Shown here in pieces: positions 8,077 through 21,321 of a stretch of DNA of 64,000 bases (the stretch's first letter is position 1; each line of letters starts with the position of its first letter). The notes under the pieces were generated by a model. It saw only the letters and a program-made list of their open reading frames with translations. It ran no database searches and was not told the DNA's origin. Made by a program: the position numbers and the translations under genes. This stretch comes from Lentzea tibetensis (GTDB lineage Bacteria > Actinomycetota > Actinomycetes > Mycobacteriales > Pseudonocardiaceae). The stretch lies in the NCBI RefSeq assembly GCF_007845675.1, contig NZ_VOBR01000032.1, positions 49,601 through 113,600 on the forward strand, read 5' to 3'.

Positions 8077-8754
8077 GTGGACGTACTCGAGGACTACACC
8101 GGTCACGTGGATCCAGGCGGCCCCGCCGCCCGCCGTGTTCTGGACGCGCTGACCATCACGAAGATCTCCGTCGGTCCGATGGACAACAACGCCTACCTGC
8201 TCGTTTGCCGTACGACCAACGAGGCGTTGCTCATCGACGCGGCCAACGACCCGGAGCGGATCGGCGATCTGCTCGGCTTCGAGCCGCAGCGCCCGCGACT
8301 GCGCACGATCGTGACCACCCACCAGCACGCCGATCACTGGCAGGCGTTGGGCGCGGTGGCCGGAGCACACGGTTCGAACACCGCCGCACACCCGCTCGAC
8401 GCCCCCGTCCTGCCCGTTCCGCCGGACTTCCTCGTGGAGCACGGCGACACCGTTGACGTGGGCGAAGCCCAGTTGTCGATCATCCACCTGCGCGGGCACA
8501 CGCCGGGGTCGATCGCGCTGCTCTACCGGGACCCGGCCGGGCACCCGCACCTGTTCACCGGAGATTCACTCTTTCCGGGGGGTGTGGGCAAGACCACGTC
8601 GGCCGACAACTTCGCGTCGCTCATCAACGACGTGGAGGACCGGATCTTCGGCACGCTGCCCGACGACACGTGGTTCTACCCCGGTCACGGGGACGACTCG
8701 ACGCTCGGCAAGGAGCGGTCGAACCTCGCGGAGTGGCGCACCCGCGGCTGGTGA
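8077..8754 (+). CDS. MBL-fold metallo-hydrolase (glyoxalase II-like)
   Basis: 225-residue beta-lactamase-fold hydrolase. The metal motif HQHADH is followed by a downstream His in RGHTPGS, Asp in TGDSLF and His in YPGHGDD, so the full dinuclear zinc ligand set is present. The closing GHGDDSTLGKE segment is typical of the actinobacterial glyoxalase II/hydroxyacylglutathione hydrolase-like branch. The substrate is probably a thioester, possibly of mycothiol, but this is inferred. The GTG at 8077 is the first start after the divergent promoter. The 3' end abuts the AT-rich island by 9 bp. Confidence 0.87.
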   Translation: MDVLEDYTGHVDPGGPAARRVLDALTITKISVGPMDNNAYLLVCRTTNEALLIDAANDPERIGDLLGFEPQRPRLRTIVTTHQHADHWQALGAVAGAHGSNTAAHPLDAPVLPVPPDFLVEHGDTVDVGEAQLSIIHLRGHTPGSIALLYRDPAGHPHLFTGDSLFPGGVGKTTSADNFASLINDVEDRIFGTLPDDTWFYPGHGDDSTLGKERSNLAEWRTRGW

Positions 8755-8763
8755 CGAATCGAA

Positions 8764-11700
8764 CTAGGTGGGTACGCCCCGGTTGCGCTCAATCAGCCTG
8801 CTTAGCCGGGGCTCGTACTCGCGAACAGCTCGATCGAACTGGAAGCTGTCGAGACTGATCTTACGACCGAGTTCAATCACCCCCTTGATAGTACTGACAG
8901 AAACAGAGAAGTCGCGCTCAAGCAGGAATTTGTATACAGTCTCCAACCATTCTGTACCGGCTCTAGCCATCACCACAAAACTATGCTCAGAAGAGGTTCC
9001 CCGCGTTCGGCAGACATCGTCGAGCGCCTTCAATGCAGCTATCGCGGCTTGACGTTTATCCGAATCGCTCGAATCCTCTGCCGACCTCCTCAAGGTCACG
9101 GACGCCCAACCGGTTTCAACTTTATAATCACCTTCACCACCGCACCCACGCGCGGACTGGAAATAGTTTGCAGCAATTCCAAGATGGTTGCGCTGAAGTT
9201 CAAACTCACCGCGCTGCAACCAGTAGTGGAAGTCGTAGTCCAAGAATTCTTGCACCGAATCATATATTTCCCTGACCGTGTCATCCGGTAGTCGAAATTC
9301 GATCATCAGGGCATGATTGAGAAGACGCACCATAGTTCGCCGATAGGGATTGTTACTGTCATCTATATGCCCCGCATAGCCCGCGTAAAAACGGATCAGC
9401 GACTTCATGACTTCACCCAACAATGACGTGCGCTTTTTGAGTACCACTTTGATCACAGTGTCGGCGATCGTCCGCTGCCTGCAGCGGATCATGCCATTGG
9501 AGCCCCGTACAACCAAGCGCATATGAATCAGTGAGGCTATAGCGCGTTCCATTCGAGCGCTCGGAGCTCCGGGCGACACGATCTGCAACAGATCCACAGA
9601 ATCGACGCCACGCCTTTTGAACACCTCGGCTGACTCAAGAACACAAATCGTCGCATAGACCAATGCCTGACCATCATCTAGTTGCTCGAACTCGCTGCGA
9701 ACCTTATCCTCAAATAATTGCCCTGTCACCACCTGAATCATGGCAACGAGCAGACTATGTTCACACATGCGGCGCAATTCTTCGAGACGCCTGAAAGGCC
9801 ATCGATGCTGCTTGAGCACACCAAGAAGGCCATGCGTCTTGAGCACCTTGATGAGCGATCTCAGGTCGTCGTCGGATAGAGGGTCATCAGCAGAAACATC
9901 GGCCGCCCGAAGGGTGCTGGGCACAAAATCGAGCTTTGTATTGCGTACTGCGGCAACCACCACCGTCTTGCCACCTCTGGTCAACTCCCGCAGTAGAGAT
10001 GCGGCACGGCTACCGAAGATGTCAACATCATCGACGAATATCGCGTCGAGCTCGAGTTCGAGGGCTTCAGCAAGGATCATCTCCAATGATTTAGTAGCCG
10101 ATCGATCCACCCAGCCGACGACGCTCCCCTCCTGATGGAGGCGATATGCACATTGCATCAATGTCGTCGTCTTGCTGAGCCAGCGGCTCCGCGCAGGATG
10201 ACGATGCTTCGACTTTCTCCGCCGAACTTGCGCGTCTCGTCGAGCACACGGTCCGACACCGAGAGCCGGGCAGCGTAATTCCCGGTGATGTCTCCCCACT
10301 CGGGCTCACTGCCTTTAAGGAATCCTTTTGACCCCTTAGCCAACTTGTCGATCATGGTCGATACCAGGGACATTCCTGTCGCCGCGTCGCGAACAGCCAG
10401 TGACTCGGCTAGCCGTCTTTTGCCCTGCTCAAGTCTCTGGTTGCCCGGCCGAAGCCGCGCATCTGCAAAGGAGGTGGGCGACTCACAGATGTGACGTAAT
10501 CCGCTGTGGTGGATGCGGGCGCGCTCGGAGGAACCCGCTTCGGGAGCAACGATAAAGCGAGGGTAACTGCCTGAGCCTGACGGGAGGTTCAACGACGATA
10601 GGACTCGCCACAATGCGACGCTGTGGGCCGACTCGGCGAAGAACACCACCGGGTGGTAAACGATCTCCGCTCGCAAGCGGTTGAACCACAGCGCTCGCGC
10701 CGATGGCGTATCTGCGGCAGGCACGCTGAAGTCAACAGAGATCGAGCTGCCATCGAAGCAGCCGTTCATCGCGGTGACCTCGCAGGCATTTTGCCGGTCT
10801 CCCGGCTTCTTCGTCAGCGCGCTCGTCAGTATCACGGGCGTCAGCTTGCCCTCGGCGAGCACTTTGATAGCGCCAGACGCGGAGAAGTCGTAGACCCGCC
10901 ACCACGGGCTGCTCAGTACCCGGTGAAGGTCGGGATAGAGTGAGTCCACATCACCCCGCAAACCGTTGAGCGTATTCTCCAAGCGGTTGGCGGGCAGGTG
11001 GGCCTGCGCTGCGGACCAAATCTCGTCCATACTCGGCTCCGGCTGTGGAACCTGGCCGAACACGTCCACCGCGAGCTGTCTACTGAGCGTGTCAAGGTCG
11101 ACCACCGCCCCACCTCCGGGGAGGCCGGATACCAAGACAGCGATCATCTGACCGGACTCAACCTGGCGATAGAAGTCCGACAACACCTGCGCAGCGTCGC
11201 AATCCTCCACGAGGGCATCAACGGGCGCGGGCGCAATAGCCAAGGAATTGTGAAAGGAAAGCGACGACAGCGGGATGGCAGACTTTCCAGCCCGTTTAGC
11301 CGAGTCCTGCACCACCGGTACACCCTTGTGATCGAAGCCGATCTTCATGCAAACAGGCTTTTTAGGATCAGCTACAAACCAGCCTCTCCGTTTAGGCGAT
11401 GGTTCGAGCCTCGCATTCCCACCTGAGATCAGTAGAGTCGACGACCGGGCATCCAACAGCCTCGGAGGAGGAGCTGATAAACCCGAGACAATCAAAGTGA
11501 GTGCGTTGGAGTTGGCCCACTCCTTCCAAGACTCGCCAACAGCGTGCTGCAGTTGTTCGCCGGCCAGCACGACGTGGTCGAGGCTTAGTTCCGGGCCAAC
11601 TCCGCGGAAGATCGAGTTGACCACCACGAGCCCGATCTGATGGTTTCCCGTCTTGACCGTGAGCGACCCTTCTCCCGGTAACACTCCCTGGTGCCAGTCC

Positions 11701-12140
11701 GGCAACTCCGCGACGACTGGTCGTTGCCACGCGAGGTAGTCGGGGAAAATCTTGTGCTCGAGAGCCTCGATGACATCTTCCTGTTCTCCGGCCCACACAC
11801 CCTGATCTACCTCGTGCCATCTTCGCACGAGAGTATCGACGAGCATGTGGCGTGACGGAATCGAGCGCATGTCTCCTAGCCCAGGCACTGGCACTACAAG
11901 CGGAAAGTCGGCGGCCCCAGCATCAAGACACCCCTCCTGGACGGCGTCTATCAACTGGTTGCCAGCGATGTAAATGCTGGAGTCAGGGGTACTCCCACCG
12001 ATGAGAACAACCAGGTCGAGTTCACCACCTACCTGACGAGCACTTTCGACAGAACGAGCAGTGAACCTCTGTAGCTCCTCGCACCACCCCTCATCCACCT
12101 TGTCGATGACAAGCGGCAGGACGTGCACAACCGGATCCAC
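8764..12140 (-). pseudogene. Giant STAND-type NTPase with phosphoesterase-like and SIR2-like N-terminal regions, frameshifted in its Walker A loop
   Basis: Two abutting reading frames form one gene. The first (10158-12140, GTG start) ends ...SIVILRGAAGSARRRH; the second (from about 10174 down to 8764) resumes KTTTLMQCAYRLHQ. Restoring one base near 10175 gives GAAGSGKTT, a perfect Walker A, and a protein of about 1125 residues. Walker B-like IFVDDVD falls near 703-707, followed by sensor-like TVVVAAVRNTK and a long helical tail. Residues 1-270 resemble a metal-less calcineurin-type phosphoesterase (VVVNSIFRG; SGLSAPPPRLL). Residues 290-560 resemble a SIR2 domain whose usual LHG reads MNG. Base composition is far less GC-rich than the neighbours. 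The start lies 2 nt after the membrane-protein stop. Real mutation or sequencing error cannot be separated here. Domain calls are by eye. Confidence 0.72.
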
Positions 12141-12142
12141 TT

Positions 12143-12829
12143 CTATTCACCTTCTAAGCTGACAGCTAGGATTTCACCCTTCGGAATGTGCAGCGCAAAC
12201 TTCTCGGCTGCGCACCCAGACTGGGTCAACTCGATCTCCACAAATTGAGTGACGAGAGATTCCTTGTTGATGTCGCCCACCAGTCTCTCGGTCAACAACG
12301 GACACAGCTTTTGCAACTCCACTACGTACTTCGCACTGACGAGCACATCACCGCGACCAGTCCGGCCAGATGAGCTAAATAGAAACAGCGCGAAGGTAAG
12401 CATCGTCAGTAAGACGGCGCCTACAACTGCAATATTCGCCCACTTCTGCCGGCTATCGATCTGCTCAGCCTCGTTTTGCGCCTTCTTGAGGACCAGATTA
12501 ATTAGGTCGAGACGGTTCTTTACATGGCTGGTATCTGTCCAGGCGCGCACTGGGACCGCTACCGCTCTCAAGTAGAGGATGCCCGCGCATAGCCACAACA
12601 CAACCGCAGCGAGACCTGCTACACGGATAAGTGGCGGCCTTTCCGCCAATGCGGTGAAGGTGAACGCTGCCACAAGGCCACCCGAAAAAACTGTGATGGT
12701 CGACTGCGCAGCCTGCGCTCGCACGCGAGCAGCACTACTCGAGCGCACACGATCGGAGTAATACGCCTCACTAGCAGGTCCGATCACCGCATCGATGAGG
12801 AGTTCTTGTTCAGAGTTCTCCGACGTCAC
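12143..12829 (-). CDS. Membrane protein, probable partner of the STAND NTPase
   Basis: 228 residues with a cytosolic N-terminus (AYYSDRVRSSSAARVRAQAAQ), two close membrane helices (about 45-98), a Lys/Glu-rich linker, a third helix (KWANIAVVGAVLLTMLTFALFLF, about 130-155) and a soluble C-terminal domain of about 70 residues. I do not recognise the family; the layout recalls SLATT-like proteins that sit beside sensor NTPases. The GTG at 12829 has GAAGGTGG 7 nt upstream; the frame stays open to 12913. It is the first gene of a tight two-gene unit with the NTPase and shares its AT-rich composition. Confidence 0.75.
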   Translation of the reverse strand: MTSENSEQELLIDAVIGPASEAYYSDRVRSSSAARVRAQAAQSTITVFSGGLVAAFTFTALAERPPLIRVAGLAAVVLWLCAGILYLRAVAVPVRAWTDTSHVKNRLDLINLVLKKAQNEAEQIDSRQKWANIAVVGAVLLTMLTFALFLFSSSGRTGRGDVLVSAKYVVELQKLCPLLTERLVGDINKESLVTQFVEIELTQSGCAAEKFALHIPKGEILAVSLEGE

Positions 12830-13231
12830 CCGAACACCACCTTCGAACCAAGGTCTACCCAGATCAACCAACCAGGCGAATCTGAAGCGGTGGCGTTCCG
12901 GGAGCTGGCGCACGCTAAATCGACCGCGAAGGCATATGCGTTACACGGTTATGAATTCGAGACCATCTTGAGGAGAGTTCGGCACGGTTTCACATCGCCG
13001 CCCAAGCTAGGTTTGACGCAGGGTGGGCAATCGGTCACGCACTGGGTATCACATGAAGACCTGACTGTATTCAAGCGACTCTGTACGCAACCGCCCATGA
13101 ACCACTCTCCCGCATTTGCTGATCCACACCGAGGCCTCAAGGTCAAAACCGTCGACCCACTGACAATCGAGCTCGCACAGGCCAGCTGCAGGACTTGACC
13201 TCCAGCGCGGTGGAGACCGCACGATCGGGTC
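12830..13231. other. Island flank without a convincing gene
   Basis: About 400 bp of composition between the island and normal chromosome. Open frames exist on both strands (12806-13198 plus, 12949-13398 minus) but neither has a coherent fold pattern, SD or recognisable motif. It probably holds the promoter of the membrane-protein/NTPase pair. I see no tRNA, att-like duplication or integrase. Confidence 0.5.
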
Positions 13232-13558
13232 ATGTCGACGAACCTGGTGTTACGCGCGGACCAACAGTCGCTCTGGCTGTGCTTCGAGCCGTGGGCGACG
13301 GAGTACACCGCCCTGCCCGGCACAACGATCGTCATCCGCTTCCACAACGAGACACCGGTCGAGGTGGCCCACCACCGCGACGGGATGACGTTCTTCACCC
13401 TCGGCCGGCACCCGGACCTCTACGCCGAGGACGGCACACCGGTGGAGATCTACAGCGAGTACCTGCCCGAGACGCCGAAAGGGGTCCCGATCAGCGGGTT
13501 CCGGTTCATCATGGAGGCGGTCCCGCCCGTCAGGAGCGAGCCGGACCGCCTGAACTAG
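13232..13558 (+). CDS. Small conserved protein of unknown function (108 aa)
   Basis: I do not recognise this family. The protein is acidic and compact with beta-rich stretches (LWLCFEPWATEYTALPGTTIVIRFHNE, then VEIYSEYLP) and no signal peptide or membrane segment. The codon pattern is GC-rich and matches the core chromosome, so it marks the right-hand return from the island. It converges 3 bp from the RCC1 gene. The ATG at 13232 gives the only well-formed start. Confidence 0.65.
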   Translation: MSTNLVLRADQQSLWLCFEPWATEYTALPGTTIVIRFHNETPVEVAHHRDGMTFFTLGRHPDLYAEDGTPVEIYSEYLPETPKGVPISGFRFIMEAVPPVRSEPDRLN

Positions 13559-14473
13559 CTACTTGAGAACGGCGTTGAAGTACCCGCCCGCGGAAATGGC
13601 CGTCACGCCGGACTTCGCGGTGACCGGTACGTCGCTCTGCCCGGAGTGGTTGTGCCACCAGGCGATGACCTCGCCGTTGTCCTTGAGCGCCAGGCTGTGT
13701 TGCGAGCCCGCGCTCACCGCGACCACGTGGTCGTCGACCTCGATGGGCATGTCGAGCTGGTGGTAGGCGTTGTTGCCCCAGCCGATGACCCGCCCGTTCT
13801 TGACGGCGACCGTGAACGACGCGCCCGCCGACACGGACGTGACGCCGGACTTCGCTTCCTCCGGGACGTCGCACTCACCGAAGTTGTTCGGCCCCCAGCA
13901 CAGCACCTCGCCGTCCTTCAGCGCCACGCTGAAGTACATGCCGGCGGAGATCGCGTCCACACCCGACTGCGCCTCGAGCGGAACCTTGAGCTCGCCGTGG
14001 TTCCCCATGCCCCACGCGATGACCTTGCCGTCGGTGTCGAGCGCGAGGTTGTGCAGGTAGCCCGCGGCGACGTGGGTGATGCCGGACTGCGTCTCGGGCG
14101 GCGGCGCCAGCACCTGGCCGGGCCCGGTGTACCGGCCCCACGACCAGACCTTGCCGTTCTTGATCGCGAGGCTCTGGTGGTTGCCCGCGGCGACCTCGGT
14201 GACGCCGCCGCGGCGCAGGTCGATCGGCACGAACGCCTTGTCCTCGGACGAGTCGCCCCAGTGGATCGGCACGCCGTTCTTGAGCGCCAGACCGTGTGCG
14301 AGGCCCGCGGAGACCATGGTGACGCCGTCCGCCGTGGTGGCGGGCGGCGTGGACTGACCGTAGTAGTTGCTGCCCCACGCGACGACCTGTCCGGTCGCCG
14401 GGGCAGCGGACGCTCCTGTAGCTGTCGAGGCCGCAGTCGCGATCAGAGCGATGCTCAATGCCAGTAATCGCAT
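13559..14473 (-). CDS. Secreted RCC1-repeat beta-propeller protein
   Basis: 304 residues with a Sec signal peptide (MRLLALSIALIATAASTATGASA, cleavage near 23). The rest is six or seven RCC1 repeats: VVAWGSNYYGQSTPP, VIAWGMGNHGELKVP, VIGWGNNAYHQLDMP, each followed by GVTxVSAGxxHSLALK. Eukaryotic RCC1 is a nucleotide exchange factor, but secreted bacterial repeats of this kind are binding scaffolds of unknown target. No extra domain is present. Confidence 0.88.
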   Translation of the reverse strand: MRLLALSIALIATAASTATGASAAPATGQVVAWGSNYYGQSTPPATTADGVTMVSAGLAHGLALKNGVPIHWGDSSEDKAFVPIDLRRGGVTEVAAGNHQSLAIKNGKVWSWGRYTGPGQVLAPPPETQSGITHVAAGYLHNLALDTDGKVIAWGMGNHGELKVPLEAQSGVDAISAGMYFSVALKDGEVLCWGPNNFGECDVPEEAKSGVTSVSAGASFTVAVKNGRVIGWGNNAYHQLDMPIEVDDHVVAVSAGSQHSLALKDNGEVIAWWHNHSGQSDVPVTAKSGVTAISAGGYFNAVLK

Positions 14474-14524
14474 TCGGGCGATCTTGGCGGTGCCGCGCGG
14501 ATCCTGTCAAAGATTTTCCAGGAT

Positions 14525-15121
14525 TCAACCTTTATTGGTAGTTGCTACCACGTCCAGCAGGTCGAGGTACCCGGTGGTGGTGCGCCAGAGCGCGTCGGAG
14601 TACGGGGTGAGCTTGCCGGGGCTCCAGCGGTGGTCGGTGTAGGCCTGGTTCTCCCGGCGCAGCGCGGCGAGGCTCACCGCGAACTCGTCCTCGACGCGCT
14701 TGTGCAGCTCCTCGGGTGACGGCGCGGCCTGGCGGACCAGTTCACCCGCGCCGTCGGACAGCGCGACCAGCGCTTCCTCGGCGATGCCGTCGGCCGCGCT
14801 CCAGACCAGCGCGGGGCGTTCGATGCGGTGGTTCCACACCGGTGCGCCCGCCGACCGCCAGAACGGCGTGATCGGGTTGCGCGACAAGCGGGTGGCGTTC
14901 GCCCAGTGCTCCGCGCCGACGGGCTCGGTGAGCCACGGCACCTCGTCGACCGGCAGGTCGGTCACCAGCGCGACCTCGATGCCGTCGAGGTCGCGCGGAA
15001 CGTCGAGCAGGTCGCCGACGGCCCACAGTTCGACCACCTGGAAGCGGAAGAACGAACCGTCCAGCCCGGCGCACTTCTCCGTGAGCTCCGTCAGGTGGTG
15101 CACCGCGCGTGTCCATTTCAC
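14525..15121 (-). CDS. Conserved actinobacterial protein of unknown function (198 aa)
   Basis: No catalytic motif is evident. Stretches that look strongly conserved are ELWAVGDLLDVPRDLDGIEVALV, VDEVPWLTEPVGAEHWANATRL and PVWNHRIERPALVW, followed by a C-terminal helical hairpin. I believe it belongs to an actinobacterial DUF family (DUF7711 in my memory, unverified). The GTG at 15121 begins MKWTRAVHHLTEL. It is soluble, with no signal peptide. Confidence 0.72.
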   Translation of the reverse strand: MKWTRAVHHLTELTEKCAGLDGSFFRFQVVELWAVGDLLDVPRDLDGIEVALVTDLPVDEVPWLTEPVGAEHWANATRLSRNPITPFWRSAGAPVWNHRIERPALVWSAADGIAEEALVALSDGAGELVRQAAPSPEELHKRVEDEFAVSLAALRRENQAYTDHRWSPGKLTPYSDALWRTTTGYLDLLDVVATTNKG

Positions 15122-15158
15122 GTGCCCATTCTGGGACCGCGAGCAGCCACGACGTTCG

Positions 15159-17775: not shown

Positions 17776-21321
<3,546 letters not shown>

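What the first reader, a model, noticed from the sequence alone, without database searches (positions are those of the whole stretch)
8764..12829. Candidate defence cassette: membrane protein plus phosphoesterase-like/SIR2-like/STAND NTPase in an AT-rich island
Seen: two tightly spaced minus-strand genes (2-nt gap) with far lower GC than all neighbours, flanked by ordinary GC-rich genes. The large product (about 1125 aa when rejoined) has a P-loop, a Walker B (IFVDDVD) and a long helical tail, the STAND layout. Its N-terminal thirds read to me as a metal-less calcineurin-type phosphoesterase and a SIR2-like domain. The partner has three membrane helices. Known: SIR2-STAND (Avs5-type) and other STAND proteins are anti-phage sensors, and membrane effectors often accompany them. 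Inference: a two-gene, possibly undescribed, abortive-infection-type system in which the phosphoesterase-like and SIR2-like parts are scaffolds and the membrane protein is effector or anchor.
Basis: partly seen in the sequence, partly recalled or inferred. Interest (0 to 1): 0.85.

Follow-up and report, generated by a model that had tools for sequence, protein, structure and literature searches.

The report
Broken immune sensor with membrane partner
An actinobacterial genome carries a damaged copy of a rare, mobile two-gene set, probably a virus-defence system, in which a switch protein wearing two apparently dead enzyme domains is paired with a small membrane protein that may do the killing.

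Summary
Two minus-strand genes, 2 nt apart, have the lowest GC3 of 55 ORFs picked in the window. The large gene is frame-broken inside its P-loop; its halves carry positions 2-52 and 54-136 of Pfam nSTAND_NTPase5. I found 14 other genomes (8 Streptomyces, 5 Micromonospora, 1 Modestobacter). All 14 keep an intact 1115-1139-aa version directly behind the same membrane gene. The two proteins co-vary (r = 0.985), yet the pair occurs in about 1% of genomes sampled. The middle domain has a sirtuin fold by profile comparison, without sirtuin active-site motifs in 15 of 15 rows. The N-terminal domain may be a metal-less phosphoesterase; that evidence is weak. Four relatives with sirtuin motifs lack the membrane partner. 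Best reading: a SIR2-nSTAND5 immune switch whose NADase died and whose output passed to a membrane effector. The N-domain evolves fastest, NTPase and tail slowest, so the dead domains may face the phage. Defence is inferred; 0 of 10 neighbouring ORFs tested matched defence models. The window copy is probably inactive, or mis-assembled. No description was found in ten searches of one paper library.

The parts
12143..12829 (-). Three-helix membrane partner, 228 aa (ORF listed from 12913). Hydrophobic segments about 12644-12700, 12575-12631, 12377-12433; invariant Cys at 12302-12304 and 12212-12214 in the C-terminal part after the third segment
   Evidence: adjacent to the STAND gene in 14 of 14 homologous genomes
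10158..12140 (-). STAND gene, first ORF (660 aa): N-domain, SIR2-like domain, first part of the NTPase
11202..12140 (-). N-terminal domain, possibly a metal-less calcineurin-type phosphoesterase; fastest evolving part of the family
   Evidence: weak fold assignment
10380..11201 (-). SIR2-like domain without the GxG glycine pair and TTNxD; NG in place of HG
   Evidence: hhalign 92.4% to a sirtuin set; colinear HMM match to SIR2-nSTAND5 proteins; motif table; bounds
10176..10325 (-). First part of nSTAND5 NTPase (PF25199 positions 2-52), ending in the P-loop
10158..10299 (-). Overlap of the two ORFs; the frame break lies here, inside the P-loop
   Evidence: unbroken in 14 of 14 homologues
8764..10173 (-). 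STAND gene, second part (listed as ORF 8764-10299): rest of the P-loop, Walker B and helical tail
9934..10173 (-). Second part of nSTAND5 NTPase (PF25199 positions 54-136); Walker B DDVD at 10021-10032
8764..9933 (-). Helical tail (helical by my reading of the sequence), slow evolving like the NTPase; conserved HYWLQ motif (about 9214-9228) gives a weak match to Avs5 models
8755..15158 (.). Accessory segment absent at this place from the closest relative examined (G024); part of it (14551-15122) has a homologue elsewhere in that relative

Best explanation
The pair is a rare, horizontally moving, two-gene immune module of actinobacteria. The large protein is a SIR2-nSTAND5 switch whose sirtuin has lost its NADase residues and which carries a second, apparently dead enzyme-like domain at its N-terminus. 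On sensing an infection signal it binds nucleotide and oligomerises (inferred from the STAND class). Because it has no visible catalytic domain left, the output is passed to the co-translated three-helix membrane protein, which then permeabilises or depolarises the membrane, stopping or killing the cell (inferred). Shown here: the conserved pairing, gene order and co-variation; the intact NTPase in relatives; loss of the sirtuin motifs; dN/dS below 1 in all domains; patchy distribution; and an empty site. Inferred: phage as trigger, oligomerisation, direct contact of the two proteins, and membrane killing. The copy in this window is frame-broken in the P-loop and is probably inactive unless that is an assembly error.
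For: Pair in 14 of 14 genomes, same strand, gap -8 to +8 nt. Distance-matrix correlation 0.985, 0 of 2000 permutations reach it. The STAND tree splits the 6 Micromonospora and Modestobacter copies from the 9 others, window and Streptomyces together, at 97/97, although Micromonospora and Modestobacter share the window's order and Streptomyces does not. PF25199 far above cut-off in 4 of 4 intact homologues scanned. Sirtuin fold: 92.4%, score 54 against null 13.3 +/- 2.3, 0 of 60 shuffles; motifs absent in 15 of 15. Four SIR2-nSTAND5 loci with sirtuin motifs have no homologue of the membrane protein. dN/dS below 1 for every domain in 7 pairs. Patchy: 4 of 397 genomes of the order including the window's own, 3 of 295 Streptomyces genomes with a full-length match. 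The STAND gene has lower GC than the rest of its locus in 13 of 14.
Against: No functional data. PADLOC gives no strong match to the proteins and none to 10 of 10 neighbouring ORFs at the five copies not beside argC or metG; PycTM 5.7 kb from one copy is the only defence gene seen. No family member in phage, plasmid or viral collections with the queries used. Two relatives of the membrane protein occur without this STAND, so it could be a general component.
Confidence: 0.45

Rival explanations
1. The membrane protein is an anchor or inhibitor, not the killer. The STAND protein is the effector, for example through a residual nucleotide- or ADP-ribose-binding role of the SIR2-like domain or through filament formation alone, and the membrane protein places it at sites of phage entry.
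For: The membrane protein has a charged stretch between its second and third hydrophobic segments and a two-cysteine C-terminal part that could be receptor-like. Avs5 itself gathers at membrane-associated entry sites (PMC12931631, passages seen). The HG or NG pair of the SIR2 fold is kept (8 HG, 7 NG of 15), as in Avs5.
Against: No sirtuin active-site motif is left in any of 15 rows; four SIR2-nSTAND5 loci with motifs do without a membrane gene of this family.
Confidence: 0.25
2. The pair is not anti-phage but a stress or developmental signalling pair of actinobacteria that uses STAND chemistry.
For: argC within 0.5 kb in 7 of 14 and metG beside it in 2; all five Micromonospora copies at one site; GC in Micromonospora only 0.02-0.07 below the rest of the locus; no PADLOC match in 10 of 10 neighbouring ORFs tested.
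Against: About 1% prevalence, low GC in the window, empty site in a relative, probable transfer between families.
Confidence: 0.25
3. Toxin-antitoxin-like pair: the membrane protein is toxic and the STAND protein normally holds it inactive; loss or alteration of the STAND protein releases it.
For: Pairing in 14 of 14 and genes close enough for translational coupling.
Against: The window copy has a broken STAND next to an intact membrane ORF, which such a pair should not survive, if the break is real; membrane relatives without the STAND exist.
Confidence: 0.05

Closest known systems
Avs5 (AVAST type 5, SIR2-STAND)
   Same: SIR2 fold followed by a STAND NTPase and a repeat tail; short shared C-terminal motif (NF041814 match at 957-986 of L054, E 2.6e-4; PDB 9nah, titled only 'SIR2 family protein', E 0.023); NG in place of HG is also common in Avs5 (PMC12931631 passage)
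   Different: The Avs5 proteins studied use nSTAND3 and an active sirtuin needing GAGXS/TTNXD (PMC12931631, passages, section 9); here nSTAND5, no motifs, an extra N-domain, a constant membrane partner; 19 bits against a cut-off of 1000
SIR2-nSTAND5 proteins without this partner (L048, L049, L050; Psychrobacter plasmid WP_068039562.1)
   Same: Family HMM aligns colinearly to three of the four from the start of the SIR2-like domain through the NTPase (E 2.5e-20 to 3.3e-12); to L048 only over the NTPase and beyond, weakly, with filters off (E 1.7e-4), though it has a strong PF25199 match (121.6 bits)
   Different: GxG and (T/S)TNxD motifs present, no N-terminal 310-aa domain, no membrane partner of this family
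Conflict systems with inactive enzyme domains (Kaur et al. 2020, PMC7159879)
   Same: Inactive enzyme modules proposed there as decoys or binding domains; 2TM SLATT proteins beside nucleotide-related effectors (passages seen)
   Different: Those passages concern MoxR-vWA and GTPase systems; 'SIR2' and '3TM' have no occurrence in the main text
Pycsar/SLATT-type transmembrane effectors
   Same: Small multi-helix membrane proteins as presumed effectors
   Different: The partner matches no PycTM or SLATT model over a cut-off in Pfam and nothing in PADLOC (window copy only); that Pfam holds SLATT models is recalled

Membership tests
STAND NTPase, nSTAND5 (PF25199) | Match above the curated cut-off of 34 bits | tested here: met
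   94-134 bits in 4 of 4 intact homologues scanned; window 60.2 bits in the second piece, 32.3 in the first
STAND NTPase, nSTAND5 (PF25199) | Intact Walker A in one frame | tested here: not met
   Broken in the window copy; the frame is intact in 14 of 14 homologues
Avs5 | Sirtuin motifs GAGXS and TTNXD | tested here: not met
   0 of 15 rows
Avs5 | Whole-protein model NF041814 (cut-off 1000 bits) | tested here: not met
   19 bits at best in 3 scanned; PADLOC Avs5 E 5.6e-4 at best
Avs5 | nSTAND3 (PF20720) as NTPase | tested here: not met
   22.8 bits at best in 4 scanned, cut-off 27.2, far below nSTAND5
Active SIR2 NADase | Sirtuin fold | tested here: met
   Profile comparison 92.4%; other pairings tested as controls 0.03-0.8%; colinear HMM match. 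Against: no Pfam SIR2 match in 15 rows; not checked by structure
Active SIR2 NADase | NAD-binding and catalytic residues | tested here: not met
Calcineurin-type phosphoesterase | Fold | tested here: inconclusive
   Score 30 against null maximum 23 (0 of 60), but probability 24% with a 7-sequence and 14% with a 5-sequence reference set; no Pfam match in 15 rows
Calcineurin-type phosphoesterase | Metal ligands (DxH, GD, GNH, GHxH; motifs recalled) | tested here: not met
   No row has the set; single remnants in some (read by eye)
SLATT or PycTM membrane effector | Match to family models | tested here: not met
Anti-phage defence system | Protects against phage | not testable with these tools
   needs an experiment
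Anti-phage defence system | Near other defence genes | tested here: inconclusive
   0 of 10 nearest ORFs at five copies match PADLOC; PycTM 5.7 kb from one copy; neighbours of the nine copies beside argC or metG were not scanned and no control loci were run

The most novel reading that the evidence does not exclude
A bacterial 'integrated decoy' receptor: two dead enzyme domains, a pseudo-phosphoesterase and a pseudo-sirtuin, are the pathogen-facing bait at the front of a STAND switch, the conserved tail contacts the switch or the membrane partner, and the membrane protein is the executioner. This reverses the usual order of Avs proteins (N-terminal effector, C-terminal sensor) and captures an effector swap from NAD depletion to membrane attack.
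Probability: 0.15. Interest if true: 0.85.

Novelty: new variant of a known kind. Interest (0 to 1): 0.55.

Why it matters
If true, it shows how a NADase immune protein can keep its body, lose its enzyme and hand killing to a membrane protein, with relatives that keep the sirtuin motifs available as the 'before' state. It also makes testable in bacteria whether dead enzyme domains serve as bait, as in plant NLRs with integrated decoys (recalled; only a search listing was seen). Each step can be tested with one intact Streptomyces pair.

Tried and rejected
Single-sequence scan of genome contigs with the 660-aa piece found nothing; the C-part alignment found 11 loci. A class-wide search with PF25199 was too unspecific (286 of 296 genomes match at E <= 0.001, 33 over the cut-off). 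PDB searches with the N-domain and the SIR2-like alignments alone gave only chance hits; the full alignment gave weak hits to ThsA over the SIR2-like part (E 0.027) and to 9nah over a short tail motif (E 0.023), behind stronger generic P-loop hits. Pfam scans of 15 rows of each domain gave no SIR2 and no phosphoesterase match; these count against the fold assignments and are why profile-profile comparison was used. The N-domain alignment also scored above its shuffled null against the sirtuin set (20.3, null maximum 17.2), so the shuffle null is lenient. One weak hit to the N-domain elsewhere (L082) proved to be the antisense of another gene. L048 gave no match to the family HMM with normal filters and a weak one over the NTPase and beyond without them. 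Programmed frameshifting was rejected because 14 of 14 homologues are unbroken. A toxin-antitoxin reading was considered and ranked low. The paper library was searched ten times. None of the listings, nor the passages read of PMC8195603, PMC12931631, PMC7159879 and PMC12700824, nor section 9 of PMC12931631 describes this pair; most preprints and most subscription papers are not in that library, and no paper was read whole.
Full report
What is there. On the minus strand of the window lie a membrane-protein ORF (12143-12913; likely start at 12829) and, 2 nt further, a large gene split over two overlapping ORFs, 10158-12140 and 8764-10299. The two ORFs carry complementary parts of Pfam nSTAND_NTPase5, profile positions 2-52 and 54-136, so the frame changes inside the P-loop. 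The three ORFs have the lowest GC3 of the 55 ORFs of at least 150 aa picked mechanically in the window (0.59, 0.62, 0.68; the next lowest is 0.705; the picking rule favours high GC3). The region has one match in its own genome.

Relatives. With the first piece as query, 2 of 100 relatives (own genome included) and 4 of 397 genomes of the order (own included) match. A scan of genome contigs with an alignment of the second part found 11 loci in named Streptomyces (6), Micromonospora (4) and Modestobacter (1) genomes. Among 295 Streptomyces genomes, 5 match at E <= 0.001, 3 of them over the full length (one already known, two new). No member was found in viral contigs, phage records or plasmids, where the one hit is a SIR2-nSTAND5 protein without the N-domain.

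The pair is conserved. In 14 of 14 the large gene is a single open frame of 1115-1139 aa and is directly preceded by the membrane gene on the same strand, with gaps from -8 to +8 nt; in 5 of the 14 the two overlap by 4 nt (start codons chosen by me from homology). Distances of the two proteins over the 91 pairs of genomes correlate at r = 0.985, and 0 of 2000 label permutations reach that. In the STAND tree the 6 Micromonospora and Modestobacter copies are split from the 9 others, window and Streptomyces together, with support 97/97; the membrane tree shows the same grouping with weaker support (84/95) and 5 of 13 inner forks open. The genomes of Micromonospora and Modestobacter share the window's order, those of Streptomyces only its class, which suggests transfer. 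The program warns of long branches, among them Modestobacter and the window.

Mobility. In the closest relative examined (G024, 87% identity in the protein of window 17776-21321), the homologue of the gene ending at window 8754 is followed after about 40 bp by the homologue of window 15159, so window 8755-15158 is an accessory segment there; a homologue of 14551-15122 and a second partial copy of the 8563-8754 stretch lie elsewhere in the same locus, and synteny is rearranged further out. Two other relatives gave no match in this stretch. The STAND gene has lower GC than the rest of its locus in 13 of 14 genomes, by 0.02-0.07 in the five Micromonospora and by 0.12 for the pair in the window; the exception is L060. 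In the five Micromonospora the cassette lies between pheT and argC; in two Streptomyces argC follows within 0.5 kb, in two others metG lies beside it (these gene names are mine, from recalled sequence, and no annotation was available).

Anatomy of the large protein. Residues about 1-312 (L054 numbering): N-domain. Residues about 313-589: SIR2-like. Then the nSTAND5 NTPase and a tail that I read as helical. Profile comparison of the SIR2-like alignment (15 rows) with eight sirtuin domains from fetched loci gives 92.4% probability over 249 columns, score 54 against 13.3 +/- 2.3 for 60 column shuffles; four other pairings give 0.03-0.8%. Independently, the family HMM aligns in one stretch from its position about 321 through the NTPase to three SIR2-nSTAND5 proteins with sirtuin motifs (E 2.5e-20, 2e-16, 3.3e-12); the fourth protein tested (L048) matched only over the NTPase and beyond, weakly and with filters off. 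In those alignments the first glycine of GxG and the residues of TTNxD are replaced in the family, in 15 of 15 rows, while the HG position is H in 8 and N in 7. In Avs5 such residues are essential (three substitutions tested) and NG is about as common as HG (PMC12931631, passages seen). None of the four SIR2-nSTAND5 loci (13-20 kb each) encodes a relative of the membrane protein at E <= 10. The N-domain resembles phosphoesterases only weakly: probability 24% and 14% with two reference sets of 7 and 5 sequences, score 30 against a null maximum of 23 with the second set, no Pfam match in 15 rows, and no true relative in 295 other genomes of the phylum. Metal-ligand motifs are not kept.

The membrane protein. 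Three hydrophobic segments in the window copy (the simple scale splits or misses segments in other rows), an Arg-rich stretch before the first, a charged stretch between the second and third, and a C-terminal part with two cysteines invariant in 16 of 16 aligned rows. It matches no effector model over a cut-off. In 229 genomes of the order, 5 match its profile (own, two Micromonospora, and two others). The two others have no STAND gene of this family in view: L015 has two partners of no Pfam family next to an integrase, and L103 seems to have none. That fits a module used with several sensors.

Neighbours. Only part was scanned. At the five copies not beside argC or metG, 0 of 10 nearest mechanically picked ORFs match PADLOC at E <= 0.001. 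Of three further ORFs beside L068, one is a PycTM (E 1e-12 in Pfam), 5.7 kb away. Enrichment near defence genes is therefore not shown.

Rates. In seven close pairs, dN/dS is 0.25-0.44 for the N-domain, 0.21-0.33 for the SIR2-like domain, 0.10-0.29 for the NTPase, 0.12-0.21 for the tail and 0.14-0.33 for the membrane protein. In the five pairs bootstrapped, the N-domain exceeds the tail in 98.4-99.9% of resamples, the NTPase in 88-100%, and the SIR2-like domain in 64-98% (two of the five pairs share a sequence). All domains thus average below 1, so the dead domains are kept, but the N-domain changes fastest. In the Avs5 proteins the region between Sir2 and nSTAND3, the ATPase and the carboxy-terminal repeats are poorly conserved, and the first and last are thought to recognise phage ligands (PMC12931631 section 9); here the NTPase and tail are the conserved parts. 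Relaxed constraint on a mere scaffold would also explain this, so the decoy reading stays a minority view.

Verdict. A rare, mobile pair: a STAND switch with a dead sirtuin and probably a second dead enzyme domain, plus a membrane protein, best explained as an abortive-infection-type system whose output moved from NADase to membrane effector. Shown: pairing, motif loss, selection, mobility. Inferred: phage trigger, oligomerisation, membrane attack. The window copy itself is broken in the P-loop; reads are not available to tell a real mutation from an assembly error.

Noticed in passing
L051, L053, L012, L056, L057, L058, L061: argC follows the pair within 0.5 kb in 7 of 14 genomes across two families (between pheT and argC in Micromonospora), and metG lies beside it in two Streptomyces: a possible insertion hotspot (gene names recalled).
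   Followed up: partly
L068:17339-17863: A PycTM (Pycsar effector, PF18967, E 1e-12) lies 5.7 kb downstream of one copy of the STAND gene.
   Followed up: partly
L015:9611-13172: A relative of the membrane protein in a low-GC three-gene set with a 171-aa and an 801-aa protein without Pfam match at E <= 0.01, beside a phage integrase: possibly another undescribed module.
   Followed up: partly
L103:9250-9882: Orphan relative of the membrane protein between an ABC exporter and what looks like a transposase gene (neighbours named by recall).
   Followed up: no
window 13559-14473: RCC1-repeat protein (PF13540, E 1.6e-37) inside the same accessory segment as the cassette.
   Followed up: no
L104:5074-8217: SIR2-nSTAND5 protein with sirtuin motifs on a mobilizable Psychrobacter plasmid, beside type I restriction genes.
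   Followed up: partly
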